A program made the translations under genes and the position numbers. A stretch of 64,000 nucleotides of DNA, taken from Crossaster papposus. Its lineage: Eukaryota > Echinodermata > Asteroidea > Velatida > Solasteridae. Each line of letters starts with the position of its first letter. The stretch's first letter is position 1. Location: contig JBAIAA010000120.1 in the NCBI GenBank assembly GCA_037893245.1, positions 868,001-932,000 on the forward strand, read 5' to 3'. Under the pieces are notes generated by a model. It worked only from the letters and a program-made list of their open reading frames with translations, was not told the origin of the DNA and made no database searches. Positions 2,425-62,159 of the stretch are shown here, piece after piece.

Positions 2425-3168
2425 TTACAGATCGAAGAAGTTGCAGTTCTTCACGTATTTCCGATCAGTGTCGTCAGCCTCGTTGCTAGTCGCGTTGTTG
2501 AGCTGACATACTTTCTTGTCGTCACCCTGCCAGAGATTGAAGGAGTGGCATCGAGGCTCTGCCCAGCACGCCTGGCCACACCCGATGACTCCCGAAGCTG
2601 TCAGGTTCTTGATCTCGTGGTTGCGCAGACACTGGGGCATGAAGCGCCCATCGGCATCGGCTTGTAGGCAGTACGAGCGGTGAGAGACGCGCATCTCGCA
2701 GACGAAAAATTTGGCATTAGTACACAGGCTGTCTGCCCAGTTCCCATCAAACCTCTCCGCCATTCTGATGCAATCTTGACCTAGTTGTCTATGCGGGTTT
2801 CCGTTGTACCAGTTGGTGAATTTAGGCTCACCTTGGACTCCAAGGCACGCTAGTTGTCCCGTATTTTCAAAATCAGTGCAGCCAATCCACAGATCCAGTT
2901 TGCCTTTGGAATTGCCGACAATCAGCTCCATCCGAGCCCTCATTTCCCGCCAGATGAAGTCGTGTTCTTCCTGCGAGTCAGGAACGACCAGGCTGCTCCC
3001 AGGCCGGTCACAAACCTCCTTAGCTTGCCACCAATCCATCCTGTCTGGCAGCAAGATGTAACAGGCGTCTTGCCAGGCCAACCAGCCGGGAGGACAGACG
3101 GCTAACAGGGTTTGAAATACCCCGACGGTCATCAAGATAAGAAAGATTGCAAGGCTGAAAACAGACAT
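2425..3168 (-). CDS. Secreted C-type lectin with C-terminal PAN/apple domain, 247 aa
   Basis: Intact single-exon frame. The leader is divergent (AIFLILM where most copies read ANVLILM). Variable loop 1 is SKGKLDL and loop 2 contains NPHRQLGQDC and WADSLCTNAKF; position 145 is Ala (WAD). The PAN domain reads NNATSN, which creates an extra N-glycosylation sequon at N225 besides NLT at 188-190. An in-frame upstream ATG (3219) would add 17 residues. I prefer 3168 because it places the hydrophobic leader at the very N-terminus and has A at -3. The spacer upstream is type II (poly-G). Ligand unknown; probably an extracellular or secreted recognition protein. Confidence 0.92.
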   Translation of the reverse strand: MSVFSLAIFLILMTVGVFQTLLAVCPPGWLAWQDACYILLPDRMDWWQAKEVCDRPGSSLVVPDSQEEHDFIWREMRARMELIVGNSKGKLDLWIGCTDFENTGQLACLGVQGEPKFTNWYNGNPHRQLGQDCIRMAERFDGNWADSLCTNAKFFVCEMRVSHRSYCLQADADGRFMPQCLRNHEIKNLTASGVIGCGQACWAEPRCHSFNLWQGDDKKVCQLNNATSNEADDTDRKYVKNCNFFDL

Positions 3169-3277
3169 CTTTATTAGTTGGCAGCTGTTAACGATTGTTT
3201 TTCCTGATCCTTCCAACAAAATTGTGTTTTTAGAAACTCACACTCTAGATCTGTCTCTTCCTTCAGGTATCTCTCAG

Positions 3278-3314
3278 GTCTGACATGCGTCTGGAATCTC
3301 ACTCAATTATAAGC
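3278..3314 (-). promoter_or_regulatory. Core promoter, gene 2425-3168
   Basis: TATA core in 3305-3314 and initiator GTCAGAC at 3278-3284, spaced 30 bp. Predicted start near 3281, so an in-frame upstream ATG at 3219 would lie inside the 5' UTR. AGATC, similar to a downstream promoter element, lies about 30 nt into the transcript. Confidence 0.6.
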
Positions 3315-4431
3315 GATCCTTTGGTGCTCCAATCTTCTTCTGTTTGTTTCTTTTTGATTACAGGTTGCTTAGAGACGATTATTACCAGTTGTCGATTTCA
3401 GTTCCCGTGCGTGTGTATAATTAGGCAGTGGGTCCGGAAATTAAAAAATTCGAACAAAGAAAATCATGGTGAGACTAAGGCCGCCAGACTAGGGCCTAAT
3501 ATAATAATATTGCTGGCGTAGACATTGTTTGATAGGTAATAAAAAGCACGACATCTGTCACAAAATCAGAGTATACCATTATTATGAGAAAGATATTTGC
3601 CTATTATATGCTATGGCCCATTGCAGAATAGAATAAATAGGTGGAATAGTAGAGTAACAATGATAGTAGATTATCGGGGGAGGGGGGGGGGGGGGGGGGG
3701 TGTTTTTCTCTGATTCGGTCTGCTGTCCTATAATGATATGAGAACACGTCGGACCACCTTGTTGTTTGAAACAACAAATACCAACAGGGTACGCGTACGC
3801 CAACAATGGACCGATCCGGATTTGACCATAAGCCCCGCCCACCTTAGCAACGGCACGGCGACGCCATTACCTCGGTAAAATCTCGTATTTTGGAAAGAGT
3901 GTTTTCTGGGGCCAATTAATAACTATTTTGCATTTTTTTAAATTCTTTTTATATCAGCTTAACAAAATTACTACATCATTATTTTGTGATCTCCGATTGG
4001 TCGCTTCCCCAATATTATAGTTTATAACCGCGCGTGCGCAATGCTCAACTGTACATAATTATGTTGCTCTCAATTATATATAGCACCGTTGTTTTTCTCT
4101 CCCCTCGCTATCGTAGAGGTAAAGTCTAATAACTAAAATCCACTGCAGGTAATTCTTGGCTGGCGATCTTAAGAAACATAATACGTTTTGTTTTATTGGG
4201 GAAGAGAATAGCCCTCAACGGTCGACCGGAGTGGAATATAAATATCATTGGTGCTGCATATACTGCATTTTACTCATATTTTGCAGTATTAGGTAACGTT
4301 AGATGTTGAAATTTCAAAACATTTATTTGCCAAAATAAAAACAAAATTGACAATTTATTTTCTTAAAGTTTGTCTTGAGTGTATAGTATTTTGCACCTCT
4401 CCCCTAAATAAGAAATTTTTTAAAAGGAAAA

Positions 4432-5598: not shown

Positions 5599-6342
5599 TT
5601 ACAGGTCGAAGAAGTTGCAGTTCTTCACGTATTTCCGATCAGTGTCGTCAGCCTCGTTGCTAGTCGCGCTGTTTAGCTGACAGACTTTCTTGTCGTCACC
5701 CTGCCAGAGATTGAAGGAGTGGCATCGAGGCTCTGCCCAGCACGCCCGGCCACACCCGATGACTCCCGGAGCCGTCAGGTTCTTGATCTCGTGGTTGAGA
5801 AGACACTGGGGCGTGAAGCGCCCGTCGGCATCGGCTTGTAGGCAGTACGAGCGGTGAGAGACGCGCATCTCACAGGCGACAAATTTGGCATCAATACACG
5901 AGATGTCTCCCCAGTTCCCGTCAAACCTCACCGCCATTCTGATGCAATATTCACCTGGAGTTGTATGCGGGTTTCCGTTTTGCCAGTTGGTGAATTTAGG
6001 CTCACCTTGGACTCCAAGGCACGCCAGTTGGCCCGTGTTTTCAAAATCAGTGCAGCCAATCCACAGTTCCAGTTTGTCTTCGGAATTGCCGACAATCAGC
6101 TCCATCCGGGCCCTCATTTCCCGCCAGATGAAGTCGTGTTCTTCCTGCGAGTCAGGAACGACCAGGCTGCTCCCAGGCCGGTCACAGACCTCCTTAGCTT
6201 GCCACCAATCCATCCTGTCGGGCAGCAAGATGTAACAGGCGTCTTGCCAGGCCAACCAGCCGGGTGGACAGACGGCTAGCAGGGTTTGAAATACCCCGAC
6301 GGTCATCAAGATAAGAACGTTTGCAAGGCTGAAAACAGACAT
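5599..6342 (-). CDS. Secreted C-type lectin with C-terminal PAN/apple domain, 247 aa (reference copy)
   Basis: Layout used for all copies. Residues 1-23 are a hydrophobic signal peptide. Residues 25-159 are a long-form CTLD: CPPGW and the C25/C36 N-terminal pair, C53 and C157 as the framework disulphide, WIGC at 94-97, C108, and C133/C149 as the distal pair. Residues 167-242 are PAN-like, with C167, C180, C197, C201, C207, C221 and C242 and the hallmark CHSFN...KVCQLN. NLT at 188-190 is a sequon. The usual sugar motif EPN/QPD is replaced by NPH at 124-126 and WND by WGD at 144-146, so calcium-dependent mannose or galactose binding is not assured. Loop 2 reads NPHTTPGEYC and MAVRFDG. No introns are seen. 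Family role is carbohydrate or protein recognition outside the cell; the ligand is unknown. Confidence 0.93.
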   Translation of the reverse strand: MSVFSLANVLILMTVGVFQTLLAVCPPGWLAWQDACYILLPDRMDWWQAKEVCDRPGSSLVVPDSQEEHDFIWREMRARMELIVGNSEDKLELWIGCTDFENTGQLACLGVQGEPKFTNWQNGNPHTTPGEYCIRMAVRFDGNWGDISCIDAKFVACEMRVSHRSYCLQADADGRFTPQCLLNHEIKNLTAPGVIGCGRACWAEPRCHSFNLWQGDDKKVCQLNSATSNEADDTDRKYVKNCNFFDL

Positions 6343-6453
6343 CTTTATTAGTTGGCGGTTAACGATTGTTTCTCCGGATTCTTCAAAAATAATTGTGACA
6401 TCAGAAACCTATCCCACCCTCTAGATCTGTCTCTTCCTTCAGGTATCTCTCAG

Positions 6454-6490
6454 GTCTGACACGCGTCTGGAATCTCACTCAATTATAAGC
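6454..6490 (-). promoter_or_regulatory. Core promoter, gene 5599-6342
   Basis: TATA in 6481-6490 and initiator at 6454-6460. Plus-strand TGACATCA, a CRE-like site with one mismatch, lies in the predicted 5' UTR between this promoter and the ATG. Confidence 0.6.
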
Positions 6491-8593: not shown

Positions 8594-9337
8594 TTACAGG
8601 TCGAAGAAGTTGCAGTTCTTCACGTATTTCCGATCAGTGTCGTCAGCCTCGTTGCTAGTCGCGCTGTTTAGCTGACAGACTTTCTTGTCGTCACCCTGCC
8701 AGAGATTGAAGGAGTGGCATCGAGGCTCTGCCCAGCACGCCCGGCCACACCCGATGACTCCCGGAGCCGTCAGGTTCTTGATCTCGTGGTTGAGAAGACA
8801 CTGGGGCGTGAAGCGCCCGTCGGCATCGGCTTGTAGGCAGTACGAGCGGTGAGAGACGCGCATCTCGCAGGCGACAAATTTGGCATCAATACACGAGATG
8901 TCTCCCCAGTTCCCGTCAAACCTCTCCGCCATTCTGATGCAATATTCACCTGAATATGTATGCGGGTTTCCGTTTTGCCAGTTGGTGAATTTAGGCTCAC
9001 CTTGGACTCCAAGGCACGCCAGTTGGCCCGTGTTTTCAAAATCAGTGCAGCCAATCCACAGTTCCAGTTTGTCTTCGGAATTGCCGACAATCAGCTCCAT
9101 CCGGGCCCTCATTTCCCGCCAGATGAAGTCGTGTTCTTCCTGCGAGTCAGGAACGACCAGGCTGCTCCCAGGCCGGTCACAGACCTCCTTAGCTTGCCAC
9201 CAATCCATCCTGTCGGGCAGCAAGATGTAACAGGCGTCTTGCCAGGCCAACCAGCCGGGTGGACAGACGGCTAGCAGGGTTTGAAATACCCCGACGGTCA
9301 TCAAGATAAGAACGTTTGCAAGGCTGAAAACAGACAT
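8594..9337 (-). CDS. Secreted C-type lectin with C-terminal PAN/apple domain, 247 aa
   Basis: Nearly identical to the gene at 5599-6342. By eye the coding sequences differ at five bases: three within 4 bp in codons 128-129 (Thr-Pro to Tyr-Ser), one in codon 138 (Val to Glu) and one silent change in Cys157. Loop 2 therefore reads NPHTYSGEYC and MAERFDG. The leader, the rest of the CTLD and the PAN domain are unchanged. The spacers on both sides also match those of its neighbour, which points to a recent unit duplication followed by change confined to the loop. Confidence 0.93.
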   Translation of the reverse strand: MSVFSLANVLILMTVGVFQTLLAVCPPGWLAWQDACYILLPDRMDWWQAKEVCDRPGSSLVVPDSQEEHDFIWREMRARMELIVGNSEDKLELWIGCTDFENTGQLACLGVQGEPKFTNWQNGNPHTYSGEYCIRMAERFDGNWGDISCIDAKFVACEMRVSHRSYCLQADADGRFTPQCLLNHEIKNLTAPGVIGCGRACWAEPRCHSFNLWQGDDKKVCQLNSATSNEADDTDRKYVKNCNFFDL

Positions 9338-11592: not shown

Positions 11593-12336
11593 TTACAGGT
11601 CGAAGAAGTTGCAGTTCTTCACGTATTTCCGATCAGTGTCGTCAGCCTCGTTGCTAGTCGCGCTGTTTAGCTGACAGACTTTCTTGTCGTCACCCTGCCA
11701 GAGATTGAAGGAGTGGCATCGAGGCTCTGCCCAGCACGCCCGGCCACACCCCATGACCCCCGGAGCCGTCAGGTTCTTGATCTCGTGGTTGAGAAGACAC
11801 TGGGGCGTGAAGCGCCCGTCAGCATCGGCTTGTAGGCAGTACGAGCGGTGAGAGACGCGCATCTCGCAGGCGACAAATTTGGCATCAATACACGATTTGT
11901 CTGCCCAGTTCCCGTCAAACCTCTCTGCCATTCTGATGCAGTCTTCATCTGGATTTGTTGGCGGTTTTCCGTTGTACCAGTTGGTGAATTTAGGCTCACC
12001 TTGGACTCCAAGGCACGCAAGTTGGCCGGTGTTTTCAAAATCAGTGCAGCCAATCCACAGTTCCAGTTTGTCTTCGGAATTGCCGACAATCAGCTCCATC
12101 CGGGCCCTCATTTCCCGCCAGATGAAGTCGTGTTCTTCCTGCGAGTCAGGAACGACCAGGCTGCTCCCAGGCCGGTCACAGACCTCCTTAGCTTGCCACC
12201 AATCCATCCTGTCGGGCAGCAAGATGTAACAGGCGTCTTGCCAGGCCAACCAGCCGGGAGGACAGACGGCTAGCAGGGTTTGAAATACCCCGACGGTCAT
12301 CAAGATAAGAACGTTTGCAAGGCTTAAAACAGACAT
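11593..12336 (-). CDS. Secreted C-type lectin with C-terminal PAN/apple domain, 247 aa
   Basis: Intact. Leader MSVLSL, shared with the partial gene at the window start. Loop 1 is SEDKLEL; loop 2 has GKPPTNPDEDC and WADKSCIDAKF, so the proline-centred motif is KPP rather than NPH. PAN domain with I195M (GVMGCG) and TAPG at 190-193, as in the two genes to its left. The 5' flank and spacer up to about 13480 match the first 1.28 kb of the window without an indel. Confidence 0.92.
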   Translation of the reverse strand: MSVLSLANVLILMTVGVFQTLLAVCPPGWLAWQDACYILLPDRMDWWQAKEVCDRPGSSLVVPDSQEEHDFIWREMRARMELIVGNSEDKLELWIGCTDFENTGQLACLGVQGEPKFTNWYNGKPPTNPDEDCIRMAERFDGNWADKSCIDAKFVACEMRVSHRSYCLQADADGRFTPQCLLNHEIKNLTAPGVMGCGRACWAEPRCHSFNLWQGDDKKVCQLNSATSNEADDTDRKYVKNCNFFDL

Positions 12337-14745: not shown

Positions 14746-14814
14746 TCAGCTTGTTCTGTGGATTGGATGAGTTCTTTAAATTGTTTTGAATATGCCTTCT
14801 TGAACCGCGAAAGT

Positions 14815-15558
14815 TTACAGATCGAAGAAGTTGCAGTTCTTCACGTATTTCCGATCAGTGTCGTCAGTCTCGTTGCTAGTCGCGCTGTTTAGCTGACAGA
14901 CTTTCTTGTCGTCACCCTGCCAAAGATTGAAGGAGTGGCATCGAGGCTCTGCCCAGCACGCCTGGCCACACCCGATGACTCCCGAAGCCGTCAGGTTCTT
15001 GATCTCGTGGTTGATCAGACACTGGGGCGTGAAGCGCCCGTTGGCATCGGCTTGTAGGCAGTACGAGCGGTGAGAGACGCGCATCTCGCAGGCGACAAAT
15101 TTGGAACGAAAACACGATTTGTCTCCCCAGTTCCCGTCATGCTTCTCCGCCATTCTTATGCAGTCTTCACGTGGATCTGTATGCGGGTTTCCGTTGTACC
15201 AGTTGGTGAATTTAGGCTCACCTTGGACTCCAAGGCACGCTAGTTGGCCCGTGTTTTCAAAATCAGTGCAGCCAATCCACAGTTCCAGTTTGTTTGTGGA
15301 ATTGCCGACAATCAGCTCCATCCGGGCCCTCATTTCCCGCCAAATGAAGTCGTGTTCTTCCTGTGAGTCAGGAACGACCAGGCTGCTCCCAGGCCGGTCA
15401 CAGACCTTCTTAGCTTGCCACCAATCCATCCTGTCGGGCAGCAAGATGTAACAGGCGTCTTGCCAGGCCAACCAACCGGGAGGACAGACGGCTAGCAGGG
15501 TTTGAAATACCCCGGCGGCCATCAAGATAAGAACGTTTGCAAGGCTGAAAACAGACAT
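14815..15558 (-). CDS. Secreted C-type lectin with C-terminal PAN/apple domain, 247 aa
   Basis: Intact. Leader with AAGVF (T14A, V15A). Loop 1 is NSTNKLEL, creating an N-glycosylation sequon at N86 next to the variable loop. Loop 2 has NPHTDPREDC, MAEKHDG and WGDKSCFRSKF. The PAN domain carries CLINHE and GQACW, plus NETDD, a further sequon at N229. A duplicated 3' tail of a sister gene follows it at 14649-14745. Confidence 0.92.
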   Translation of the reverse strand: MSVFSLANVLILMAAGVFQTLLAVCPPGWLAWQDACYILLPDRMDWWQAKKVCDRPGSSLVVPDSQEEHDFIWREMRARMELIVGNSTNKLELWIGCTDFENTGQLACLGVQGEPKFTNWYNGNPHTDPREDCIRMAEKHDGNWGDKSCFRSKFVACEMRVSHRSYCLQADANGRFTPQCLINHEIKNLTASGVIGCGQACWAEPRCHSFNLWQGDDKKVCQLNSATSNETDDTDRKYVKNCNFFDL

Positions 15559-17837: not shown

Positions 17838-18581
17838 CTACAGGTCGAAGAAGTTGCAGTTCTTCACGTATTTCAGATCAGTCTCGCCAGCCTCGTTGCT
17901 AGTCGCGCTGTTGAGCTGACAGACTTTCTTGTCGTCACCCTGCCAGAGATTGAAGGAGTGGCATCGAGGCTCTGCCCAGCACGCCCGGCCACACCCGATG
18001 ACTCCCGAGGCCGTCAGGTTCTTGATCTCGTGGTTGAGCAGACACTGGGGCGTGAAGCGCCCGTCGGCATCGGCTTGTAGGCAGTACGGGCGGTGAGAGA
18101 CGCGCATCTCGCAGGCGACAAATTTGGAATGAATACACCGGCTGTCTCCCCAGTTCCCGTCAAAACTCTCCGCCATTCTGATGCAATCTTGACCTGGATC
18201 TCTATGCGGGTTTCCTTTGTTCCAGTTAGTGAATGTAGGCTCACCTTGGACTCCAAGGCACGCCAGTTGGCCCGTGTTTTCAAAATCAGTGCAGCCAATC
18301 CACAGTTCCAGTTTGTTTGTGGAATTGCCGACAATCAGCTCCATCCTGGCCCTCATTTCCCGCCAGATGAAGTCGTGTTCTTCCTGCGAGTCAGGAACGA
18401 CTAGGCTGCTCCCAGGCCGGTCACATACCTCCTTAGCTTGCCACCAATCCATCCTGTCGGGCAGCAAGATGTAACAGGCGTCTTGCCAGGCCAACCAGCC
18501 GGGAGGACAGACGGCTAGCAGGGTTTGAAATACCCCGACGGTCATCAAGATAAGAACGTTTGCAAGGCTGAAAACAGACAT
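17838..18581 (-). CDS. Secreted C-type lectin with C-terminal PAN/apple domain, 247 aa
   Basis: Intact. Loop 1 is NSTNKLEL (sequon at N86). Loop 2 has EPTFTNWNKGNP, HRDPGQDC, MAESFDG and WGDSRCIHSKF, combining features found separately in other copies: HR as at 2425-3168 and the HSKF end as at 24169-24912. Linker S165P (HRPYC). The PAN tail reads EAGETDLKYVK. No frame defects seen. Confidence 0.92.
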   Translation of the reverse strand: MSVFSLANVLILMTVGVFQTLLAVCPPGWLAWQDACYILLPDRMDWWQAKEVCDRPGSSLVVPDSQEEHDFIWREMRARMELIVGNSTNKLELWIGCTDFENTGQLACLGVQGEPTFTNWNKGNPHRDPGQDCIRMAESFDGNWGDSRCIHSKFVACEMRVSHRPYCLQADADGRFTPQCLLNHEIKNLTASGVIGCGRACWAEPRCHSFNLWQGDDKKVCQLNSATSNEAGETDLKYVKNCNFFDL

Positions 18582-21150: not shown

Positions 21151-21894
21151 TTACAGGTCGAAGAAGTTGCAGTTCTTCATGTATTTCCGATCAGTGTCGC
21201 CAGCCTCGTTGCTAGTCGCGCTGTTTAGCTGACAGACTTTCTTGTCGTCACCCTGCCAGAGATTGAAGGAGTGGCATCGAGGCTCTGCCCAGCACGCCCG
21301 GCCACACCCGATGACTCCCGAAGCTGTCAGGTTCTTGATCTCGTGGTTGAGCAGACACTGGGGCGTGAAGCGCCCGTCGGCAACGGCTTGTAGGCAGTAC
21401 GAGCGGTGAAAGACGCGCATCTCGCAGGCGACAAATTTGGCATGAATACACGGGCTGTCTCCCCACTTCCCGTCATACTTCTCCGCCATTCTGATGCAGT
21501 CTTCACCTGGATCTGTATGCGGGTTGCCGTTGTTCCAGTTGGTGAATTTAGGCTCACCTTGGACTCCAAGGCACGCCAGTTGGCCCGTGTTTTCAAAATC
21601 AGTGCAGCCAATCCACAGTTCCAGTTTGCCTGTGGAATTGCCGACAATCAGCTCCATCCTTGCCCTCATTTCCCGCCAGATGAAGTCGTGTTCTTCCTGC
21701 GAGTCGGGAACGACCAGGCTGCCCCCAGGCCGGTCACAGACCTCCTTAGCTTGCCTCCAAGCCATCCTGTCGGGCAGCAAGATGTAACAGGCGTCTTGCC
21801 AGGCCAACCAACCGGGAGGACAGACGGCTAGCAGGGTTTGAAATACCCCGACGGTCATCAAGATAAGAACGTTTGCAAGGCTGAAAACAGACAT
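21151..21894 (-). CDS. Secreted C-type lectin with C-terminal PAN/apple domain, 247 aa
   Basis: Intact and one of the more diverged frameworks: RMAWRQAKE at 43-51, PGGSL at 56-60, VFHRS in the linker, QAVADG at 169-174 and KYMKNC near the end. Loop 1 is NSTGKLEL (sequon at N86); loop 2 is WNNGNPHTDPGEDC, MAEKYDGKWGDSPCIHAKF. All framework cysteines are kept. The neighbouring 3' spacer (18582-21150) holds a hAT-type MITE. Confidence 0.92.
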   Translation of the reverse strand: MSVFSLANVLILMTVGVFQTLLAVCPPGWLAWQDACYILLPDRMAWRQAKEVCDRPGGSLVVPDSQEEHDFIWREMRARMELIVGNSTGKLELWIGCTDFENTGQLACLGVQGEPKFTNWNNGNPHTDPGEDCIRMAEKYDGKWGDSPCIHAKFVACEMRVFHRSYCLQAVADGRFTPQCLLNHEIKNLTASGVIGCGRACWAEPRCHSFNLWQGDDKKVCQLNSATSNEAGDTDRKYMKNCNFFDL

Positions 21895-24168: not shown

Positions 24169-24912
24169 TTACAGGTCGAAGAAGTTGCAGTTCTTCACGT
24201 ATTTCCGATCAGTGTCGTCAGCCTCGTTGCTAGTCGCGCTGTTTAGCTGACAGACTTTCTTGTTGTCACCCTGCCAGAGATTGAAGGAGTGGCATCGAGG
24301 CTCTGCCCAGCACGCCCGGCCACACCCGATGACTCCTGAAGCTGTCAGGTTCTTGATCTCGTAGTTGAGCAGACACTGGGGCTTGAAGCGCCCGTCGGCA
24401 TCGGCTTGTAGGCAGTACGAGCGGTGAGAGAAGCGCATCTCGCAGGCGACAAATTTGGAATGAAAACACGATTTGTCTCCCCAGTTCCCGTCATGCTTCT
24501 CCGCCATTCTGATGCAATCTTGACCTAGATCTGTATGCGGGTTTCCGTTTTTCCAGCCAGTGAATATAGGCTCACCTTGGACTCCAAGGCACGCCAGTTG
24601 GCCCGTGTTTTCAAAATCAGTGCAGCCGATCCACAGTTCCAGTTCGTCTATGGAATTGCCGACAATCAGCTTCATCCGGGCCCTCATTTCCCGCCAGATG
24701 AAGTCGTGTTCTTCCTGCGAGTCGGGAACGACCAGGCTGCTCCCAGGCCGGTCACAAACCTCCTTAGCTTTCCACCAATCCATCCTGTCGGGCAGCAAGA
24801 TGTAACAGGCGTCTTGCCAGGCCAACCAGTCGGGAGGACAGACGGCTAGCAGGGTTTGAAATACCCCTACTGTCATCAAGATAAGAACGTTTGCAAGGCT
24901 GAAAACAAACAT
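24169..24912 (-). CDS. Secreted C-type lectin with C-terminal PAN/apple domain, 247 aa
   Basis: Intact. Leader MFVFSL; CPPDW at 25-29; WWKAK at 46-50; MKLIV at 80-84. Loop 1 is NSIDELEL. Loop 2 has EPIFTGWKNGNP (the only Gly at 119), HTDLGQDC, MAEKHDG and WGDKSCFHSKF. The PAN domain has FKPQC, NYEIK and GDNKK. Its 5' flank is the only one in which the conserved TGACATCA motif is a perfect palindromic CRE, TGACGTCA (24966-24973). Confidence 0.92.
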   Translation of the reverse strand: MFVFSLANVLILMTVGVFQTLLAVCPPDWLAWQDACYILLPDRMDWWKAKEVCDRPGSSLVVPDSQEEHDFIWREMRARMKLIVGNSIDELELWIGCTDFENTGQLACLGVQGEPIFTGWKNGNPHTDLGQDCIRMAEKHDGNWGDKSCFHSKFVACEMRFSHRSYCLQADADGRFKPQCLLNYEIKNLTASGVIGCGRACWAEPRCHSFNLWQGDNKKVCQLNSATSNEADDTDRKYVKNCNFFDL

Positions 24913-38785: not shown

Positions 38786-38816
38786 TCGAGAAGAACCAGC
38801 AAAAATAATTGAATTA

Positions 38817-40918: not shown

Positions 40919-41662
40919 TTACAGATCGAAGAAGTTGCAGTTCTTCACGTATTTCCGATCAGTGTCGTCAGCCTCGTTGCTAGTCGCGCTGTTTAGCTGA
41001 CAGACTTTCTTGTCGTCACCCTGCCAGAGATTGAAGGAGTGGCATCGGGGCTCTGCCCAGCACGCCCGGCCACAGCCGATGACTCCCGAAGCCGTCAGGT
41101 TCTTGATCTCGTGGTTGAGCAGACACTGGGGCGTGAAGCGCCCGTCGGCATCGGCTTGTAGGCAGTACGAGCGGTGAGAGACGCTCATCTCGCAGGCGAC
41201 AAATTTGGCTTGAATACACGGGCTGTCTGCCCACTTCCCGTCATGCTTCTTCGCCATTTTGATGCAATCTTGACCTAGTTGTCTATGCGGGTTGCCGTTG
41301 TACCAATCGGTGAATTTTGGCTCACCTTGGACTCCAAGGCACGCCAGTTGGCCCGTGTTTTCAAAATCAGTGCAGCCAATCCACAGTTCCAGTTTGTTTG
41401 TGGAATTGCCGACAATCAGCTCCATCCGGGCCCTCATTTCCCGCCAGATGAAGTCGTGTTCTTCCTGCGAGTCAGGAACGACCAGGCTGCTCCCAGGCCG
41501 GTCACAGACCGCCTTAGCTTGCCACCAATCCATCCTGTCGGGCAGCAAGATGTAACAGGCGTCTTGCCAGACCAACCAGCCGGGAGGACAGACGGCTAGC
41601 AGGGTTTGAAATACCCCGACGGTCATCAAGATAAGAACGTTTGCAAGGCTGAAAACAGACAT
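40919..41662 (-). CDS. Secreted C-type lectin with C-terminal PAN/apple domain, 247 aa
   Basis: Intact. WLVWQ at 29-33; AKAVC at 49-53; loop 1 NSTNKLEL (sequon at N86). Loop 2 is FTDWYNGNP, HRQLGQDC, IKMAKKHDGKWADSPCIQAKF, with WAD at 144-146 as in the genes at 2425 and 11593. Linker SVSH. The frame is open upstream to 41710 (16 codons), but I place the start at 41662. Its 5' flank (CCTGATCCTTCCAAC on plus, then GTGTTTTCAG) and the upstream type II spacer match the gene at 2425-3168 closely. Confidence 0.92.
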   Translation of the reverse strand: MSVFSLANVLILMTVGVFQTLLAVCPPGWLVWQDACYILLPDRMDWWQAKAVCDRPGSSLVVPDSQEEHDFIWREMRARMELIVGNSTNKLELWIGCTDFENTGQLACLGVQGEPKFTDWYNGNPHRQLGQDCIKMAKKHDGKWADSPCIQAKFVACEMSVSHRSYCLQADADGRFTPQCLLNHEIKNLTASGVIGCGRACWAEPRCHSFNLWQGDDKKVCQLNSATSNEADDTDRKYVKNCNFFDL

Positions 41663-44114: not shown

Positions 44115-44858
44115 TTACAGATCGAAGAAGTTGCAGTTCTTCACGTATTTCCGATCAGTGTCGTCAGCCTCGTTGCTAGTCGCGCTGTTTAGCTGACAGA
44201 CTTTCTTGTCGTCACCCTGCCAGAGATTGAAGGAGTGGCATCGAGGCTCTGCCCAGCACGCCCGGCCACACCCGATGACTCCCGAAGCGGTCAGGTTCTT
44301 GATCTCGTGGTTGAGCAGACACTGGGGCGTGAAGCGCCCGTCGGCATCGGCTTGTAGGCAGTACGAGCGGTGAGAGACGCGCATCTCGCAGGCGACGAAT
44401 TTGGCTTGAATACACGGTTTGTCTCCCCAGTTCCCGTCATGCTTCTCCGCCATTCTGATGCAATCTTGGCCTGGATCTGTTGGCGGTTTTCCGTTGTACC
44501 AGTTGGTGAATTTAGGCTCACCTTGGACTCCAAGGCACGTCAGTTGGCCCGTGTTTTCAAAATCAGTGCAGCCAATCCACAGTTCCAGTTTGTCTATGGA
44601 ATTGCCGACAATCAGCCTCATCCGGGCCCTCATTTCCCGCCAGATGAAGTCGTGTTCTTCCTGCGAGTCAGGAACGACCAGGCTGCTCCCGGGCCGGTCA
44701 CAGACCTCCTTAGCTTGCCACCAATCCATCCTGTCGGGCAGCAAGATGTAACAGGCGTCTTGCCAGCCCAACCAGCCGTGAGGACAGACGGCTAGCAGGG
44801 TTTGAAATACCCCGACGGTCATCAAGATAATAACGTTTGCAAGGCTGAAAACAGACAT
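44115..44858 (-). CDS. Secreted C-type lectin with C-terminal PAN/apple domain, 247 aa (KPP loop type)
   Basis: Intact. Leader ANVIILM; CPHGWLGWQ at 25-33; MRLIV at 80-84; loop 1 NSIDKLEL; A107T (QLTC). Loop 2 is the shared GKPPTDPGQDC, MAEKHDG, WGDKPCIQAKF. The N-terminal third resembles the gene at 58415-59158 (CPHGW, NSIDK), while loop 2 resembles 29317 and 36839. The gene therefore looks mosaic, with a switch around residues 97-116. Confidence 0.92.
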   Translation of the reverse strand: MSVFSLANVIILMTVGVFQTLLAVCPHGWLGWQDACYILLPDRMDWWQAKEVCDRPGSSLVVPDSQEEHDFIWREMRARMRLIVGNSIDKLELWIGCTDFENTGQLTCLGVQGEPKFTNWYNGKPPTDPGQDCIRMAEKHDGNWGDKPCIQAKFVACEMRVSHRSYCLQADADGRFTPQCLLNHEIKNLTASGVIGCGRACWAEPRCHSFNLWQGDDKKVCQLNSATSNEADDTDRKYVKNCNFFDL

Positions 44859-47132: not shown

Positions 47133-47876
47133 TTACAGGTCGAAGAAGTTGCAGTTCTTCACGTATTTCCGATCAGTGTCGTCAGCCTCGTTGCTAGTCG
47201 CGCTGTTTAGCTGACAGACTTTCTTGTCGTCACCCTGCCAGAGATTGAAGGAGTGGCATCGAGGCTCTGCCCAGCACGCCCGGCCACACCCGATGACTCC
47301 CGAAGCTGTCAGGTTCTTGATCTCGTGGTTGAGCAGACACTGGGGCGTGAAGCGCCCGTCGGCATCGGCTTGTAGGCAGTACGAGCGGTGAGAGACGCGC
47401 ATCTCGCAGGCGGCGAATTTGGCATGATTACACGGGCTGTCTCCCCAGTTCCCGTCATACTTCTCCGTCATTCTGATGCAATCTTCACCTGGATGTGTAT
47501 GCGGGTTTCCGTTGTACCAGTTGGTGAATTTAGGCTCACCTTGGACTCCAAGGCACGCCAGTTGGCCCGTGTTTTCAAAACCAGTGCAGCCAATCCACAG
47601 TTCCAGTTTGCCTTTGGAATTGCCGACAATCAGCTCCATCCGGGCCCTCATTTCCCGCCAGATGAAGTCGTGTTCTTCCTGTGAGTCAGGAACGAACAGG
47701 CTGCTTCCGGGCCGGTCACAGACCTCCTTAGCTTGCCACCAACCCATCCTGTCGGGCAGCAAGATGTAACAGGCGTCTTGCCAGGCCAACCAGCCGGGTG
47801 GACAGACGGCTAACAGGGTTTGAAATACCCCGACGGTCATCAAGATAAGAACGTTTGCAAGGCTGAAAACAGACAT
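47133..47876 (-). CDS. Secreted C-type lectin with C-terminal PAN/apple domain, 247 aa
   Basis: Intact. MGWWQAK at 44-50; SLFVPDS at 59-65; loop 1 NSKGKLEL; D99G (CTGFENT). Loop 2 has GNPHTHPGEDC, MTEKYDG, WGDSPCNHAKFAACEM, the NHAKFAACEM group also seen at 27186 and 61410. All cysteines are kept. The core promoter reads AATTATAAAC on plus, leaving the TATA core unchanged. Confidence 0.92.
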   Translation of the reverse strand: MSVFSLANVLILMTVGVFQTLLAVCPPGWLAWQDACYILLPDRMGWWQAKEVCDRPGSSLFVPDSQEEHDFIWREMRARMELIVGNSKGKLELWIGCTGFENTGQLACLGVQGEPKFTNWYNGNPHTHPGEDCIRMTEKYDGNWGDSPCNHAKFAACEMRVSHRSYCLQADADGRFTPQCLLNHEIKNLTASGVIGCGRACWAEPRCHSFNLWQGDDKKVCQLNSATSNEADDTDRKYVKNCNFFDL

Positions 47877-48561
47877 CTTTATTAGTTGGCGGTTAACGAT
47901 TGTTTCTCCTGATCCTTCAAAAAAATATGTGACATCAGAAACCTATCTCAACCTCTAGATCTGTCTCTTCCTTCAGGTATCTCTCAGGTCTGACATGCGT
48001 CTGGAATCTCACTCAATTATAAACGATCCTTTGGTGCTCCGATCTTCTTCTGTTTGTTTCTTTTTGATTACAGGTTGCTTAGAGACGATTATTACTAGTT
48101 GTCTATTTCAGTTCCCGCGCGTGTGTATAATTGAGCAGTGGGTCCGGAAATTAAAAAAATTGAACAAAGAAAATCATGGTGAGACTAAGGCCGCCAGACT
48201 GAAGGCCTAATATAATAATATTGCTGGCGTAGACATTGTTTGATAGGTAATAAAAGCATGAAATCTGGCACAAAATCAGAGTATACCATTATTATGAGAA
48301 AGATGTTTGCCTATAGGGGCTAGGGCCCATTGCAGAATAGAATAAATAGGTAGAATAGTAGAGTAACAATAATAGTAGATTATCGGGGGGTGGGGGGGGG
48401 GGGGGTGAGGTTTTTTTTTTTGATTCGGTCTGCTGTCCTATAATAAAAAGAGAACACGTCGGACCACCTTGTTGTTTGAAACAACAAATACCAACAGGGT
48501 ACGCGTACGCCAACAATGGAACGATCCGGATTTGACCATAAGCCACGCCCACCTCAGCAAC
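47877..48561. repeat. Truncated type II spacer
   Basis: 5' flank of the gene at 47133, then a G-run (48385-48405) and the left part of the type II module up to CAGCAACG, where it is joined to the gene fragment 48562-48672. Segment A, the Pol III cassette and segment B are absent. Confidence 0.85.
47988..48024 (-). promoter_or_regulatory. Core promoter, gene 47133-47876
   Basis: TATA core in 48015-48024 and initiator at 47988-47994; the base flanking the TATA differs (AAAC for AAGC on plus). Confidence 0.6.
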
Positions 48562-48672
48562 GTAACAGGCGCCTTGCCAGGCCAACCAACCGGGAGGACA
48601 GACGGCTAGCAGGGTTTGAAATACCCCGACGGTCATCAAGATAAGAACGTTTGCAAGGCTGAAAACAGACAT
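48562..48672 (-). pseudogene. Lectin gene fragment: signal peptide and first CTLD residues only
   Basis: Codons 1-37 of a lectin gene, ending at ACY with D34G, then an abrupt switch into a type II spacer at CAGCAACG. The breakpoint lies in CAGCAA, a 6-bp match between the gene (CAGCAAGATG) and the type II module (AGCAACGGCAC). The rest of the gene, its 3' flank, segment B, the tRNA-like cassette and segment A are missing. The core promoter upstream (48784-48820) looks intact, so it may still be transcribed. An open frame of 126 codons continues into the spacer but has no conserved content. Confidence 0.9.
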
Positions 48673-52252: not shown

Positions 52253-52995
52253 TTACAGGTCGAAGAAGTTGCAGTTCTTCACGTATTTCCGATCAGTGTC
52301 GTCAGCCTCGTTGCTAGTCGCGCTGTTTAGCTGACAGACTTTCTTGTCGTCACCCTGCCAGAGATTGAAGGAGTGGCATCGAGGCTCTGCCCAGCACGCC
52401 CGGCCACACCCGATGACTCCCGAAGCCGTCAGGTTCTTGATCTCGTGGTTGAGCAGACACTGGGGCGTGAAGCGCCCGTCGGCATCGGCTTGTAGGCAGT
52501 ACGAGCGATGAGAGACGCGCATCTCGCAGGCGGCAAATTTGACATGAATACACGAGATGTCTCCCCAGTTCCCGCCATACCTCTCCGCCATTCTTATGCA
52601 GTCTTCACCTGGATCTGTATGCGGTTTTCCGTTGTACCAGTTGGCGAATTGAGGCTCACCTTGGACTCCAAGGCACGCCAGTTGGCCCGTGTTTTCAAAA
52701 TCAGTGCAGCCAATCCACAGTTCTAGTTTGCTTGTGGATTTGCCGACAATCAGCTCCATCCGGGCCCTCATTTCCCGCCAGATGAAGTCGTGTTCTTCCT
52801 GTGAGTCAGGAACGACCAGGCTGCTCCCAGGCCGGTCACAAACCTCCTTAGCTTGCCACCAATCCATCCTGTCGGGCAGCAAGATGTAACAGGCGTCTTG
52901 CCAGGCCAACCAGCCGGGAGGACAGACGCTAGCAGGGTTTGAAACACCCCGACGGTCATCAAGATAAGAACGTTTGCAAGGCTGAAAACAAACAT
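52253..52995 (-). pseudogene. CTLD-PAN lectin gene with 1-bp deletion in signal peptide region
   Basis: The gene body is 743 bp. One G is missing near 52927-52928 (GACAGACGCTAG against GACAGACGGCTAG), shifting the frame right after the leader (residue 23), so the secreted protein cannot be made from the normal ATG at 52995. The remaining frame from Met at 52909 lacks a signal peptide. N86K and STSK in loop 1; FANWYNGKPH, MAERYGG and WGDISCIHVKF in loop 2. The core promoter has also decayed (TATAAT to TACAAT on minus), as has the 5' flank. Could be a sequencing error alone, but the promoter loss argues for a real pseudogene. Confidence 0.85.
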
Positions 52996-55147: not shown

Positions 55148-55883
55148 TTACAGGTCGAAGAAGTTGCAGTTCTTCACGTATTTCCGATCAGTGTCGTCAG
55201 CCTCGTTGCTAGTCGCGCTGTTTAGCTGACAGACTTTCTTGTCGTCACCCTGCCAGAGATTGAAGGAGTGGCATCGAGGCTCTGCCCAGCACGCCCGGCC
55301 ACACCCGATGACTCCCGAAGCGGTCAGGTTCTTGATCTCGTGGTTGAGCAGACACTGGGGCGTGAAGCGCCCGTCGGCATCGGCAGTACGAGCGGTGAGA
55401 GACGCGCATCTCGCAGGCGACAAATTTGGCTTGAATACACGGTTTGTCTCCCCAGTTCCCGTCATGCTTCTCCGCCATTCTGATGCAATCTTGGCCTGGA
55501 TCTGTTGGCGGTTTTCCGTTGTACCAGTTGGTGAATCGAGGCTCACCTTGGACTCCAAGGCACGTCAGTTGGCCCGTGTTTTCAAAATCAGTGCAGCCAA
55601 TCCACAGTTCCAGTTTGTCTTCGGAATTGCCGACAATCAGCTCCATCCGGGCCCTCATTTCCCGCCAGATGAAGTCGTGTTCTTCCTGCGAGTCAGGAAC
55701 GACCAGGCTGCTCCCAGGCCGGTCACAGACCTCCTTAGCTTGCCACCAATCCATCCTGTCGGGCAGCAAGATGTAACAGGCGTCTTGCCAGGCCAACCAA
55801 CCGGGAGGACAGACGGCTAACAGGGTTTGAACTACTCCGACGGTCATCAAGATAAGAACGTTTGCAAGGCTGAAAACAGGCAT
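55148..55883 (-). pseudogene. CTLD-PAN lectin gene with 8-bp deletion at the CTLD/PAN junction (KPP loop type)
   Basis: Leader MPVFSL and a complete KPP-type CTLD (SEDKLEL; GKPPTDPGQDC; WGDKPCIQAKF). Eight bases are missing at 55384/55385 (CGGCAGTACG against CGGCTTGTAGGCAGTACG), with GGC repeated at both ends, as in slippage. The frame shifts at about codon 167, so the PAN domain is lost and a scrambled tail follows to 55245. A protein would keep the signal peptide and full CTLD (212 residues in all). The correct PAN frame persists from 55148 upward. Confidence 0.87.
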
Positions 55884-57233: not shown

Positions 57234-57506
57234 CACTGACCTCTATACATGGACAGATCATCCATTGTTTCATTTTGAAGTCGGCATGCAGAGAAGTGCA
57301 ACATGGCGGACCCACGAAGTCACTCTGTGAGCCAATGAAATGTCCAGGTGTAGAGTTCAGTTGGTTGGTAAATCCACTGACCTCTACAACTGGACATTTC
57401 ATTGGCTCACAGCAGTGACGCCATGTTGCACTTCCAGTTCGCGCCGACTTCAAGTGTTAGCACAGCAGAATATGGACAATGATCCGTCCAGGTGTTGAGG
57501 TCAGTG
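57234..57506. mobile_element. hAT-type foldback MITE, 273 bp
   Basis: Ends CACTGACCTC and GAGGTCAGTG are perfect inverted copies; exact 8-bp duplication CATATCAC at 57226-57233 and 57507-57514. Same family as 19968-20281, with inverted arms and CAACATGGCGGAC in the left arm, but shortened in the centre and right arm. The different insertion site shows independent insertion rather than duplication with the unit. Confidence 0.9.
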
Positions 57507-58414: not shown

Positions 58415-59158
58415 TTACAGGTCGAAGAAGTTGCAGTTCTTCACGTATTTCCGATCAGTGTCGTCAGCCTCGTTGCTAGTCGCGCTGTTTAGCTGACAGA
58501 CTTTCTTGTCGTCACCCTGCCAGAGATTGAAGGAGTGGCATCGAGGCTCTGCCCAGCACGCCCGGCCACACCCGATGACTCCCGAAGCGTTCAGGTTCTT
58601 GATCTCGTGGTTGAGCAGACACTGGGGCGTGAAGCGCCCGTCGGCATCGGCTTGTAGGCAGTACGAGCGGTGAGAGACGCGCATCTCGCAGGCGGAGAAT
58701 TTGGCATGAATACACGGGCTGTCTCCCCACTTCCCGTCATGCTTCTCCGTCATTCTGATGCAATCTTGACCTCGATCTGTATGCGGGTTTCCGTTGTTCC
58801 AGTTGGTGAATTTAGGCTCACCTTGGACTCCAAGGCACGCCAGTTTGCCCGTGTTTTCAAAATCAGTGCAGCCAATCCACAGTTCCAGTTTGTCTATGGA
58901 ATTGCCAACAATCAGCTCCATCCGGGCCCTCATTTCCCGCCTGATGAAGTCGTGTTCTTTCTGCGAGTCAGGAACGACCAGGCTGCTCCCGGGCCGGTCA
59001 CAGACCTTCTTGGCTTGCCACCAATCCATCCTGCCGGGCAGCAAGATGTAACAGGCGTCTTGCCAGACCAACCAGCCGTGAGGACAGACGGCTAGCAGGG
59101 TTTGAAATACCCCGACGGTCATCAAGATAAGAAAGTTTGCAAGGCTGAAAACAGACAT
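58415..59158 (-). CDS. Secreted C-type lectin with C-terminal PAN/apple domain, 247 aa
   Basis: Intact but diverged in framework: ANFLILM, CPHGWLVWQ, LPGRMDW, AKKVC, SQKEHDFIRREM, GKLAC. Loop 1 NSIDKLEL; loop 2 WNNGNPHTDRGQDC, MTEKHDGKWGDSPCIHAKFSACEM. At 188-192 the sequence NLNAS replaces NLTAS, so the usual sequon at N188 is lost and a new one (NAS) appears at N190. All CTLD and PAN cysteines are kept. Confidence 0.92.
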   Translation of the reverse strand: MSVFSLANFLILMTVGVFQTLLAVCPHGWLVWQDACYILLPGRMDWWQAKKVCDRPGSSLVVPDSQKEHDFIRREMRARMELIVGNSIDKLELWIGCTDFENTGKLACLGVQGEPKFTNWNNGNPHTDRGQDCIRMTEKHDGKWGDSPCIHAKFSACEMRVSHRSYCLQADADGRFTPQCLLNHEIKNLNASGVIGCGRACWAEPRCHSFNLWQGDDKKVCQLNSATSNEADDTDRKYVKNCNFFDL

Positions 59159-59269: not shown

Positions 59270-59306
59270 GTCTGACATGCGTCTGGAATCTCACTCAATT
59301 ATAAGC
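59270..59306 (-). promoter_or_regulatory. Core promoter, gene 58415-59158
   Basis: TATA in 59297-59306 and initiator at 59270-59276. A small deletion just upstream removes the GGTGCTC block found at most genes. Confidence 0.6.
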
Positions 59307-60232
59307 GATCCTTTGTTTTGACTGCAGGTTGCCTAGAGACTAATTATCACCAGTAATTGTTGTCGATTTCAGTTCCCGTGATGCGTATACATTATAAACA
59401 ATAGGTCCGAAATTTACATAATTAATGTGATGATGAGAGACCAAGGCCTCATTATAATAATATTACTGGTGTAAACACTGTCAGATAGTTAATATTGAAG
59501 CATGACATTTGGCACAAAATCTGAATATGGCATATGAGAGCGATATTTGTCTATAGGACCCATCGCAGAATTGTGTCCGTAATAATATGGGTAGATAGTA
59601 GAATAACAACAATAGTAGAATATAAAATAATAGAATAGTAGAATAATAGAATAATAGTAAAATACCAATATTAAATTCGTATTGCAGAAGAAGGGTTTTC
59701 TAGGGCCAATTAATAACTATTTTGCATTTTTAAAAATGTTTTTATAACGGCTCAACAAATTTACTACGTCATTATTTTGTGATCTCCGATTGGTCGCTTC
59801 CCCAATATTATAGTTTATAACCGCGCGTGCGCAATGCTTAACTGTACATAATTATGTTGCTCTCAATTATATATAGCACCGTTATTTTTCTCTCCCCTCG
59901 CTATCGTAGAGGTAAAGTCTAATAACTAAAATCCACTGCAGGTAATTCTTGGATGGCGATCTTAAGAAACATAATACGTTTTGTTTTATTGGGGAAGGGA
60001 ATAGTCCTCAACGATCGACCGGAGTGGAATATAAATATCATTGGTGCTGCATATACTGCATTTTACTCATATTTTGCAGTATTAGGTAGCGTTAGATGTT
60101 GAAATTTCAAAACATTTATTTGCCAAAATACATTTGTAAAAACAAAATTGACAATTTATTTTCTTAAAGTTTGTCTTGAGTGTATAGTATTTTGCACCTC
60201 TCCCCTAAATAAGAAATTTTTTAAAAGGAAAA

Positions 60233-60337
60233 GGTGAGTGTCGAGTTGGCCCAGCGGCTTCGAACCCCAACTGTGAGTTGGGGCGGCGAGAGAATTTGCT
60301 TTAGTCTCATATTCGGACCACTGAGCTACGGATCACC
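60233..60337 (-). ncRNA. tRNA-like Pol III cassette
   Basis: 5' end GGTGATC, T4 terminator; boxes intact. Confidence 0.5.
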
Positions 60338-61409
60338 TCGGGAACAACCAGCAAAAATAATTGATTTATACTTTAGCCAGAGATGGTGCAATCATTCTAG
60401 TCTGATGCAACAAGCTGAAAACGATTCAGCTCGGTTGTATAGCGCCATCATGCGACGAGTAGTTTATTTATGCGAGAGGGCGCCCTAGGTGGCAATCATA
60501 TCACTCATTGATAATGTCTTTGTATACGAGTTATACACCATCCCAACAAAGAAACAAACACCCCAACAAACAAACAAACAAACACCCCAACTAATTTTAC
60601 CCAGAAGGAAGAAGAACTAAGAATCTAGTTTTCATGATTTATTTTTTGTGCGATAATTCTTTTTTATTAGGTGCTTGAATCTTTCAAAATGTAATTACAA
60701 ACAAGTCTATTTAGCATGTACACATTTTCACACAATGCCACGTACATTATTAACCATCAAAACCGTACTATTTGGTTTTGTCTACCTACACTTTCCAGCA
60801 AATTGCATTAATATAACTAATTTGAATTTGTATAACAGCTCAACAAATTAAAATTACTCCGTCATTATTTTGTGATGTTAGTCCGATCTCTTCCCTATAA
60901 AGTTATGGTTTATAACCGTGCATGCGCAATGTTCATGTGCAATTATTATTGCTATCATTCTGGTGCAAACTATTTTTTTTCTCTGTAAATCGTAGCCTTG
61001 TAAGCAGTGAATATAGAATCATTGTCTTAATTGTAAGTGTTTCAAAGTCTCTCGTTGAGTAAGATCAAGATAATTTGATGCATTCGGTAAAAACAAAACC
61101 GGAAAATTCACGTTCCGACCTAGTTCAGTTGATTTCCAGAAGTTCACGATAATGTACAATGCAAAAGCAACAGTGTTTTAACTTGATGTGCCAAACGAGA
61201 AGTCTGAACGAGTGTCAACATGTGTTGTTTAAATAAAGTTAGATGTACATGGCTAGTATAAGCAGTCAGCAACTGATTTGAATCCTCCTTGAAGAAAGTT
61301 GAGAATGTGTTGTAGAGCTGACAGACTTTCTTGTCATCAGCTTGTTCTGGGGATTGGATGAGTTCTTAAAATTGCTTTGAATAATGCCTTCTTGAACCCC
61401 CGCGAAAGT

Positions 61410-62159
61410 CTACAGGTCGAAGAAGTTGCAGTTCTTCACGTATTTCAGATCAGTGTCGTCAGCCTCGTTGCTAGTCGCGTTATTGAGCTGACAGACTTTC
61501 TTGTCGTCACCGGCACCCTGCCAGAGATTGAAGGAGTGGCATCGAGGCTCTGCCCAGCACGCCCGGCCACACCCGATGACTCCCGAAGCCGTCAGGTTCT
61601 TGATCTCGTGGTTGAGCAGACACTGGGGCGTGAAGCGCCCGTCGGCATCCGCTTGTAGGCAGTACGAGCGGTGAGAGACGCGCATCTCGCAGGCGGCGAA
61701 TTTGGCATGATTACACGGGCTGTCTCCCCAGTTCCCGTCATAATTCTCCGTCATTCTGATGCAATCTTCACCTGGATGTGTATGCGGGTGTTTGTTGTAC
61801 CAGTTGGTGAATTTAGGCTCACCTTGGACTCCAAGGCACGCCAGTTGGCCCGTGTTTTCAAAATCAGTGCAGCCAATCCACAGTTCCAGTTTGCCTTTGG
61901 AATTGCCGACAATCAGCTCCATCCGGGCCCTCATTTCCCGCCAGATGAAGTCGTGTTCTTCCTGCGAGTCAGGAACGACCAGGCTGCTCCCAGGCCGGTC
62001 ACAGACCGCCTTAGCTTGCCACCAATCCATCCTGTCGGGCAGCAAGATGTAACAGGCGTCTTGCCAGGCCAACCAGCCGGGAGGACAGACGGCTAGCAGG
62101 GTTTGAAATACCCCGACGGTCATCAAGATAAGAACGTTTGCAAGGCTGAAAACAGACAT
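61410..62159 (-). CDS. Secreted C-type lectin with C-terminal PAN/apple domain, 249 aa
   Basis: Intact, two codons longer than usual: a 6-bp insertion near 61510 gives QGAGDDKK in the PAN loop. AKAVC at 49-53; loop 1 NSKGKLEL; loop 2 WYNKHPHTHPGEDC, MTENYDG, WGDSPCNHAKFAACEM. It is the only copy with KHP at 123-125. NNATSN gives an extra sequon at N225+2. The frame is open upstream to 62207 (16 codons), but the start is placed at 62159. The 5' flank matches the genes at 2425 and 40919, and the next spacer is type II like theirs. Confidence 0.92.
   Translation of the reverse strand: MSVFSLANVLILMTVGVFQTLLAVCPPGWLAWQDACYILLPDRMDWWQAKAVCDRPGSSLVVPDSQEEHDFIWREMRARMELIVGNSKGKLELWIGCTDFENTGQLACLGVQGEPKFTNWYNKHPHTHPGEDCIRMTENYDGNWGDSPCNHAKFAACEMRVSHRSYCLQADADGRFTPQCLLNHEIKNLTASGVIGCGRACWAEPRCHSFNLWQGAGDDKKVCQLNNATSNEADDTDLKYVKNCNFFDL

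What the first reader, a model, noticed from the sequence alone, without database searches (positions are those of the whole stretch)
2425..62159. Lectin array with invariant framework and two hypervariable CTLD stretches
Across 19 gene bodies, the signal peptide, CTLD core and PAN domain are nearly constant, while residues 87-92 and 119-152 vary in almost every copy (Q/N/K/Y at 121; NP, KP or HP at 124-125; T/R, D/T/Y/H/N/E/Q at 127-128; ISCID, KSCFR, SRCIH, SPCNH, KPCIQ, SLCTN at 147-151). In known CTLDs this part forms the long loop and the ligand face. A secreted, single-exon, promoter-equipped multicopy lectin with diversity limited to the binding face fits an innate recognition repertoire. 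Function is inference; the pattern is seen directly.
Basis: partly seen in the sequence, partly recalled or inferred. Interest (0 to 1): 0.88.

Follow-up and report, generated by a model that had tools for sequence, protein, structure and literature searches.

The report
Lectin gene array with variable loops
A row of nineteen near-identical secreted lectin-like genes in an unidentified animal-like genome differ from one another mainly at the face where such proteins usually grip their targets, which suggests an inherited set of recognition molecules kept diverse by natural selection.

Summary
Observation confirmed. Nineteen genes of 247-249 codons in one coding exon (signal peptide, C-type lectin-like domain, PAN-like domain) lie on the - strand, mostly ~3 kb apart; 16 are intact and unit sequence runs to both window ends. 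Their piN/piS is 1.69, against 0.28 elsewhere, with similar synonymous divergence. Site models put 10-12% of codons at omega 3.7-3.9. The likelihood ratio of 51 is reached by 0 of 300 recombining neutral simulations and 0 of 80 with matched faster loops. Limits: using local synonymous sites only, the loop ratio is 1.69 with CI 0.89-3.83; the loop segment alone gives simulated p ~0.05.

Best reading: a germline repertoire of secreted recognition proteins, diversified by positive selection and sequence exchange. Immune role and organism are inference. New member of a known kind.

The parts
2425..3168 (-). g01, intact CTLD-PAN gene body (ATG to stop)
5599..6342 (-). g02, intact CTLD-PAN gene body
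6067..6084 (-). variable stretch 1 (codons 87-92), shown on g02; same codons in the other copies
   Evidence: coordinates computed by hand from the frame; variation
5887..5988 (-). variable stretch 2 (codons 119-152), shown on g02; same codons in the other copies
   Evidence: coordinates computed by hand from the frame; variation
6481..6488 (-). TATA-like box TTATAATT at -146 of g02; equivalent in 19 of 19 copies (TTACAATT in g16)
6453..6460 (-). initiator-like GTCAGACC at -118 of g02, 28 bp from the TATA-like box; equivalent in 19 of 19 copies
8594..9337 (-). g03, intact CTLD-PAN gene body (unit 99.0% identical to that of g02)
11593..12336 (-). g04, intact CTLD-PAN gene body
14815..15558 (-). 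g05, intact CTLD-PAN gene body, with a 166-bp tandem duplication at its 3' end (14559-14910)
17838..18581 (-). g06, intact CTLD-PAN gene body
21151..21894 (-). g07, intact CTLD-PAN gene body
24169..24912 (-). g08, intact CTLD-PAN gene body
27186..27929 (-). g09, broken: amber stop at codon 202, within the PAN part
29317..30060 (-). g10, intact CTLD-PAN gene body
33689..34435 (-). g11, intact CTLD-PAN gene body, one extra codon
36839..37582 (-). g12, intact CTLD-PAN gene body
40919..41662 (-). g13, intact CTLD-PAN gene body
44115..44858 (-). g14, intact CTLD-PAN gene body
47133..47876 (-). g15, intact CTLD-PAN gene body
48559..48672 (-). truncated relic: first 38 codons only
52253..52995 (-). 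g16, broken: 1-nt deletion in the signal-peptide region
55148..55883 (-). g17, broken: 8-nt deletion at codons 167-169 shifts the PAN part out of frame
58415..59158 (-). g18, intact CTLD-PAN gene body
61410..62159 (-). g19, intact CTLD-PAN gene body, two extra codons
1..138 (-). start (46 codons) of a further copy cut by the left window edge

Best explanation
The window is part of a germline tandem array of secreted CTLD-PAN proteins that acts as a recognition repertoire. Shown from sequence: each gene body has a signal peptide, a core-promoter-like block and one coding exon; the cysteines and framework are held by purifying selection, while about 15 codons on the presumed ligand face change under positive selection; face variants and flanks recur in different combinations in different copies. 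Inferred: copies exchange segments by gene conversion or unequal crossing-over; the proteins are secreted into body fluid or onto a mucosal surface and each binds a somewhat different foreign, food or symbiont surface structure; the PAN part may anchor or oligomerise them, since 15 cysteines leave one unpaired. Because the EPN/QPD and WND motifs are missing and those positions vary, binding is probably not the classic calcium-bridged sugar contact but a calcium-independent protein or glycan contact through the same face.
For: Loops piN/piS 0.150/0.089, rest 0.020/0.071. M1a/M2a 2dlnL 51.5, M8a/M8 50.2, omega 3.7-3.9 for 10-12% of codons. The 16 intact copies alone give 38.8; codons 24-85 and 158-247 with their own trees give ~0; 0 of 300 recombining neutral simulations reach 51.3, and 0 of 22 pilot ones. 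Dropping four multi-nucleotide codons leaves 52.5. Neutral loops at rate x1.25, matching observed loop diversity: 0 of 80. Alignments put 124-126 on EPN and 144-146 on WND of mincle and mannose-binding protein C. Nine DC-SIGN contact residues (of 11 noted): 6 of 9 fall on sites with posterior >0.9, 9 of 9 on sites >0.5 (transfer partly recalled). EPN/QPD and WND in 0 of 19; 14 of 15 cysteine columns are cysteine in 19 of 19 copies and one in 18 (deleted in g17). TATA/initiator-like pair in 19 of 19. Nearest relative changes from segment to segment.
Against: With local synonymous sites only, the loop ratio CI is 0.89-3.83 and the long loop alone is 0.82. The loop segment alone is matched by 6 of 137 and 6 of 137 neutral simulations. 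Neutral loops at rate x1.7 or x2.1 reach the observed ratio in 1 of 80 and 6 of 80, though with more loop diversity (0.180, 0.214) than observed (0.139). Upstream spacer DNA (75-column medians up to 0.31) is more diverged than the loops. A phi-type recombination test was not significant (p 0.56). There are no expression, ligand or population data here. Both structure models are too poor to map sites (pLDDT 35 and 50).
Confidence: 0.55

Rival explanations
1. Reproductive recognition: the proteins are gamete or seminal lectins and the loops diverge through sperm-egg or sexual conflict.
For: Rapid loop evolution of secreted recognition proteins is equally expected there (general knowledge); the selection result does not distinguish roles.
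Against: No expression data either way. A many-copy array holding many variants at once fits a repertoire better than one coevolving partner pair (inference).
Confidence: 0.12
2. Secretion for feeding or offence (venom-, mucus- or glue-type C-type lectin-like proteins), with diversification against prey or predator targets, as in snake snaclecs.
For: Calcium ligands are lost, as in many snaclecs (recalled); Foldseek hits of the poor CTLD model include snaclecs among other CTLDs.
Against: Not especially close to snaclecs by sequence: the best matches are PLA2 receptor, mincle and mannose receptor and PLA2 receptor, yolk-sac IgY receptor and mincle. The PAN fusion is not a snaclec feature (recalled).
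Confidence: 0.12
3. Food, symbiont or plastid recognition in the digestive gland, as proposed for expanded lectin-like genes of sacoglossan sea slugs.
For: PMC8079154 (passages) reports 367 and 213 lectin-like genes in two sea slugs, few one-to-one orthologues, many species-specific subclades, and digestive-gland up-regulation of 18.
Against: The organism of this window is unknown and the paper's sequences could not be compared here.
Confidence: 0.13
4. No positive selection: loops are merely unconstrained (omega about 1) in a fast-evolving array, and recombination inflates the site tests.
For: Recombination does inflate the test (null values up to 22.4). The local ratio does not exclude 1 and the segment-only test is marginal.
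Against: 0 of 300 and 0 of 80 matched neutral simulations reach the observed value; piN in loops is twice gene-wide piS (CI 1.35-3.00); cysteines 133 and 149 inside the variable stretch are invariant in 19 of 19, so the region is not unconstrained.
Confidence: 0.08

Closest known systems
Lineage-expanded lectin-like genes of sacoglossan sea slugs (OG0000005; PMC8079154, passages seen)
   Same: Large, largely species-specific duplication of lectin-like genes
   Different: The passages seen do not describe a CTLD-PAN array or site-level loop selection; shared ancestry was not testable here
CREPs and FREPs of Biomphalaria snails (PMC10875847, passages seen)
   Same: Secreted, diversified recognition proteins; that paper also reports nonsynonymous excess in the extracellular part of a CTLD-bearing receptor
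   Different: CREPs and FREPs are defined by IgSF domains; none was matched here, and there is a PAN-like domain instead
Sea urchin 185/333 family (PMC1988830, abstract and section list seen)
   Same: Small, closely linked, repeat-flanked genes; diversification attributed to gene conversion, recombination and mispairing
   Different: 185/333 are two-exon genes with element presence/absence patterns and are not C-type lectins; here diversity is mainly point substitutions on one face
Rlec hypervariable C-type lectins of river prawn (PMC7536079, abstract and section list seen)
   Same: Multigene C-type lectin family with type-specific differences
   Different: Rlec variation is repeat number, exon 5 and alternative splicing; here a single coding exon with loop substitutions
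Snake venom C-type lectin-like proteins (snaclecs; recalled, structural hits)
   Same: CTLD fold, accelerated evolution, often without calcium-dependent sugar binding (recalled)
   Different: Vertebrate venom heterodimers without a PAN domain (recalled)

Membership tests
C-type lectin-like domain (Pfam PF00059) | Significant profile match | tested here: met
   46.1-52.5 bits against cut-off 22.6 in the members whose scores were shown; 16 of 16 members matched at E <= 0.01
C-type lectin-like domain (Pfam PF00059) | Conserved CTLD cysteines | tested here: met
   8 CTLD cysteine columns are cysteine in 19 of 19 copies; which pairs form disulphides is recalled, not tested
Canonical calcium-dependent sugar-binding C-type lectin | EPN or QPD motif and WND motif | tested here: not met
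   124-126 is NPH (10), KPP (5), KPH (2), NPQ (1) or HPH (1); 144-146 is WGD (16) or WAD (3); 0 of 19 have the motifs (alignments)
PAN/apple domain (Pfam PF00024) | Match above Pfam cut-off | tested here: inconclusive
   20.3, 19.0 and 21.3 bits against 21.4 in the three members whose scores were shown; 16 of 16 at E <= 0.01, best 8.1e-05; weak match to factor XI apple domains, best E 0.0087
CREP (snail C-type lectin-related proteins) | Signal peptide, one or more IgSF domains, C-terminal CTLD | tested here: not met
   No Ig family among the Pfam matches of 16 members at E <= 0.01 (the three families found were Lectin_C, PAN_1 and, in one member, UL45); the CTLD precedes the PAN part
Diversified recognition gene family (functional class) | Multicopy, secreted, binding-face diversity under positive selection | tested here: met
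   with the limits; secretion inferred by eye from the signal sequence, no signal-peptide predictor was run
Diversified recognition gene family (functional class) | Induction by or binding to foreign targets | not testable with these tools
   no expression or binding data

The most novel reading that the evidence does not exclude
The array is a conversion-fed combinatorial library. Short face segments are copied between genes so often that variants at different sites are nearly unlinked, broken copies can act as donors, and a calcium-free CTLD face has become a general variable binding surface. Exchange might even go on in somatic cells, which would make it an invertebrate analogue of cassette-diversified receptors.
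Probability: 0.08. Interest if true: 0.85.

Novelty: new member of a known kind. Interest (0 to 1): 0.5.

Why it matters
A compact array with single coding exons, near-identical frameworks and about 15 changing face residues is a natural mutagenesis experiment on the CTLD fold. It would let one test directly whether invertebrates keep germline recognition repertoires diverse by selection plus sequence exchange, and what a C-type lectin fold binds once its calcium site is gone.

Tried and rejected
Structure mapping: AlphaFold2 on the 16 intact mature proteins gave pLDDT 34.9, and on 14 of those 16 cut to the CTLD gave 50.3 with residues 64-130 under 50. Foldseek of the latter listed 50 of 473 matches, CTLD proteins as far as their titles tell, but at rmsd 12-15.5 and TM-scores (query-normalised) of 0.36-0.42, so no distances were taken and face mapping rests on sequence alignment.

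Relatives: none confirmed in viral contigs (24 pattern matches) or prokaryote genomes (84 pattern matches); no eukaryote collection is on hand and no whole genome is held for the window. Rfam at gathering thresholds and the tRNA scan found nothing.

A phi-type recombination test was not significant (p 0.56): 39% of the pairs among 61 informative sites are incompatible whatever their distance, which fits saturated exchange but also recurrent mutation. I therefore rely on flanks that switch partner.

Considered and set aside: a local mutation hotspot alone (synonymous divergence 0.089 in loops, 0.071 elsewhere; simulations); gene conversion erasing framework differences alone (same synonymous values).

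Literature: nine searches were answered (and for DC-SIGN contacts). The listings show only the top 3-20 papers of each (for example 20 of 124), and none of the titles and abstract openings shown names such a CTLD-PAN array. The library is open-access only, so this does not prove novelty. Also looked at by passages, without use for the argument: PMC10140915 (bivalve C-type lectin expansion) and PMC2711939 (snake venom segment switching; the passages shown were not about C-type lectins).
Full report
What is there. The window holds a head-to-tail array on the - strand with spacers of 1.4-4.4 kb, most about 2.3 kb. Each of 19 gene bodies encodes a signal peptide (judged by eye), a C-type lectin-like domain (Pfam PF00059, E 9e-12 to 5e-14 in the values shown) and a weakly matching PAN domain in a single coding exon. 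16 of 19 are intact; g09, g16 and g17 carry a stop, a 1-nt deletion and an 8-nt deletion. A 38-codon relic and a copy cut by the left edge show birth and death of copies and that the array is larger than the window; on the right, unit sequence runs to the window end. A TATA-like and an initiator-like box 28 bp apart precede 19 of 19.

Variation. Similar synonymous divergence in both parts speaks against a mutation hotspot or framework-only homogenisation. The first ~350 columns of 3' flank have 75-column medians of 0.016-0.059, but upstream DNA reaches 0.31, so the loops are not the most diverged DNA in the unit. Bootstrap over codons: 1.69 (0.89-3.83) with local synonymous sites, 2.04 (1.35-3.00) with gene-wide ones. 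The long loop 106-132 alone is 0.82 and 1.38, not significant; with the two following loops added it is 1.34 (0.75-2.76) and 1.81 (1.19-2.72).

Selection tests. I wrote a small codon-model program (M0, M1a, M2a, M7, M8a, M8; F3x4; FastTree topology; branch lengths scaled together). It gave 2dlnL 51.5 for M1a/M2a, 63.2 for M7/M8 and 50.2 for M8a/M8, with 16 sites above 0.9 under M8. Posteriors are naive empirical Bayes. Because copies recombine, I simulated neutral genes whose tree labels are reshuffled every 1, 5 or 25 codons: maxima 22.1, 22.4 and 13.9 in 100 each, and 18.3 at most in 22 pilot runs, against 51.3 observed with the same fitting routine. Intact copies only: 38.8; mature part: 45.9; codons 24-85 and 158-247: about 0. 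Leaving out four codons with multi-nucleotide differences: 52.5. Against my reading: codons 86-157 with their own tree give 21.9, which 6 of 137 and 6 of 137 neutral runs reach. Neutral loops with rates x1.25, x1.7 and x2.1 reach 51.3 in 0, 1 and 6 of 80; of these only x1.25 reproduces the observed loop diversity (0.137 against 0.139; the others 0.180 and 0.214).

Where the sites lie. Alignments to mincle and mannose-binding protein C place residues 124-126 on EPN and 144-146 on WND. In 19 of 19 copies neither motif is present; 124 is N/K/H, 126 is H/P/Q, 131 is E/Q, 145 is G/A, and D146 is constant. DC-SIGN residues named as contacts in two papers (passages) map to 92, 124, 126, 128, 131, 145, 147, 148 and 151. 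Six of nine have posterior >0.9 (hypergeometric 4e-5 against 15 such sites in residues 24-160) and nine of nine >0.5 (4e-8 against 24 sites); the transfer is by spacing and partly recalled, and two ambiguous contacts were left out. By recalled spacing the 87-92 stretch, just before the WIG strand, corresponds to the DC-SIGN loop with Phe313, a secondary-site residue. Of 15 cysteine columns, 14 are cysteine in 19 of 19 copies and one in 18, being deleted in g17.

Mosaic copies. Nearest relatives differ by segment. g10, g12 and g17 are nearly identical in coding sequence, and g14 joins them in the loop and 3' coding parts (0.024 and 0.004 to its nearest), but their proximal 3' flanks are nearest to g02 (0.000), g09 (0.010), g16 (0.007) and, for g14, g05 (0.023). 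The 5' coding segment and the loop segment are uncorrelated (Mantel r 0.03), while loop and 3' coding segments correlate (r 0.42) and loop and proximal upstream segments do so less (r 0.36). LD r2 is 0.19 within 6 nt and 0.065-0.095 in all longer distance bins; among the 14 synonymous informative sites it is 0.055 (90 pairs). Exchange between copies is the simplest account; conversion tracts were not mapped formally, the phi-type test was not significant, and recurrent mutation may contribute at loop sites.

Interpretation. Purifying selection on a disulphide-rich secreted framework plus diversifying selection on one face, in many co-existing copies, is best read as a recognition repertoire. 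I hold positive selection at about 0.85-0.9, a recognition repertoire of some kind at about 0.75, and the stated immune, microbe- or foreign-surface-facing role at about 0.55. The source organism is unknown; GC 41% and CpG observed/expected 0.91 do not decide it. A mollusc, perhaps gastropod, is my guess from recalled CTLD features, not a result.

Known or new. Expanded and diversified lectin or recognition families are known in molluscs, crustaceans and echinoderms (PMC8079154, PMC10875847, PMC7536079, PMC1988830; what was seen of each is stated in Closest known systems; also PMC13428168, passages). This is a new member of that kind, notable for its CTLD-PAN architecture, single coding exon and variable site without the calcium motifs.

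Noticed in passing
32012-33358: Spacer insertion with 25-nt terminal inverted repeats (92% complementary), like a non-autonomous DNA transposon.
   Followed up: partly
19969-20281 and 57234-57506: Two ~80% identical, self-complementary elements in two different spacers, MITE-like.
   Followed up: partly
38817-39891 and 49180-50579: Two long spacer inserts that share 95-99% identical blocks; the second lies next to the unit remnant that holds the truncated gene relic, suggesting a related rearrangement.
   Followed up: partly
14559-14910: 166-bp tandem duplication at the 3' end of g05, placing a spare coding tail downstream of the stop.
   Followed up: partly
3' flank of the 19 copies (alignment): The units carry a short stretch after the stop that resembles the end of the coding sequence, perhaps an older duplication of the same kind.
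   Followed up: no
3605-3877, 34941-35137, 42162-42362, 48384-48561, 49180-49368, 62655-62845: A ~190-bp block present only in some upstream spacers, part of what look like two upstream sequence classes.
   Followed up: partly
residue 86 of g05, g06, g07 and g13; residue 188: A potential N-glycosylation sequon at residue 86 is created in four copies by a Thr at variable site 88; another at 188 is in 18 of 19 copies (190 in g18).
   Followed up: no
window:5599-6342 and 61410-62159 (- strand): A weak match of the N-terminal part to the UL45 C-type-lectin-like family (E 0.006 and 0.0035, below its cut-off); taken as CTLD cross-matching.
   Followed up: no
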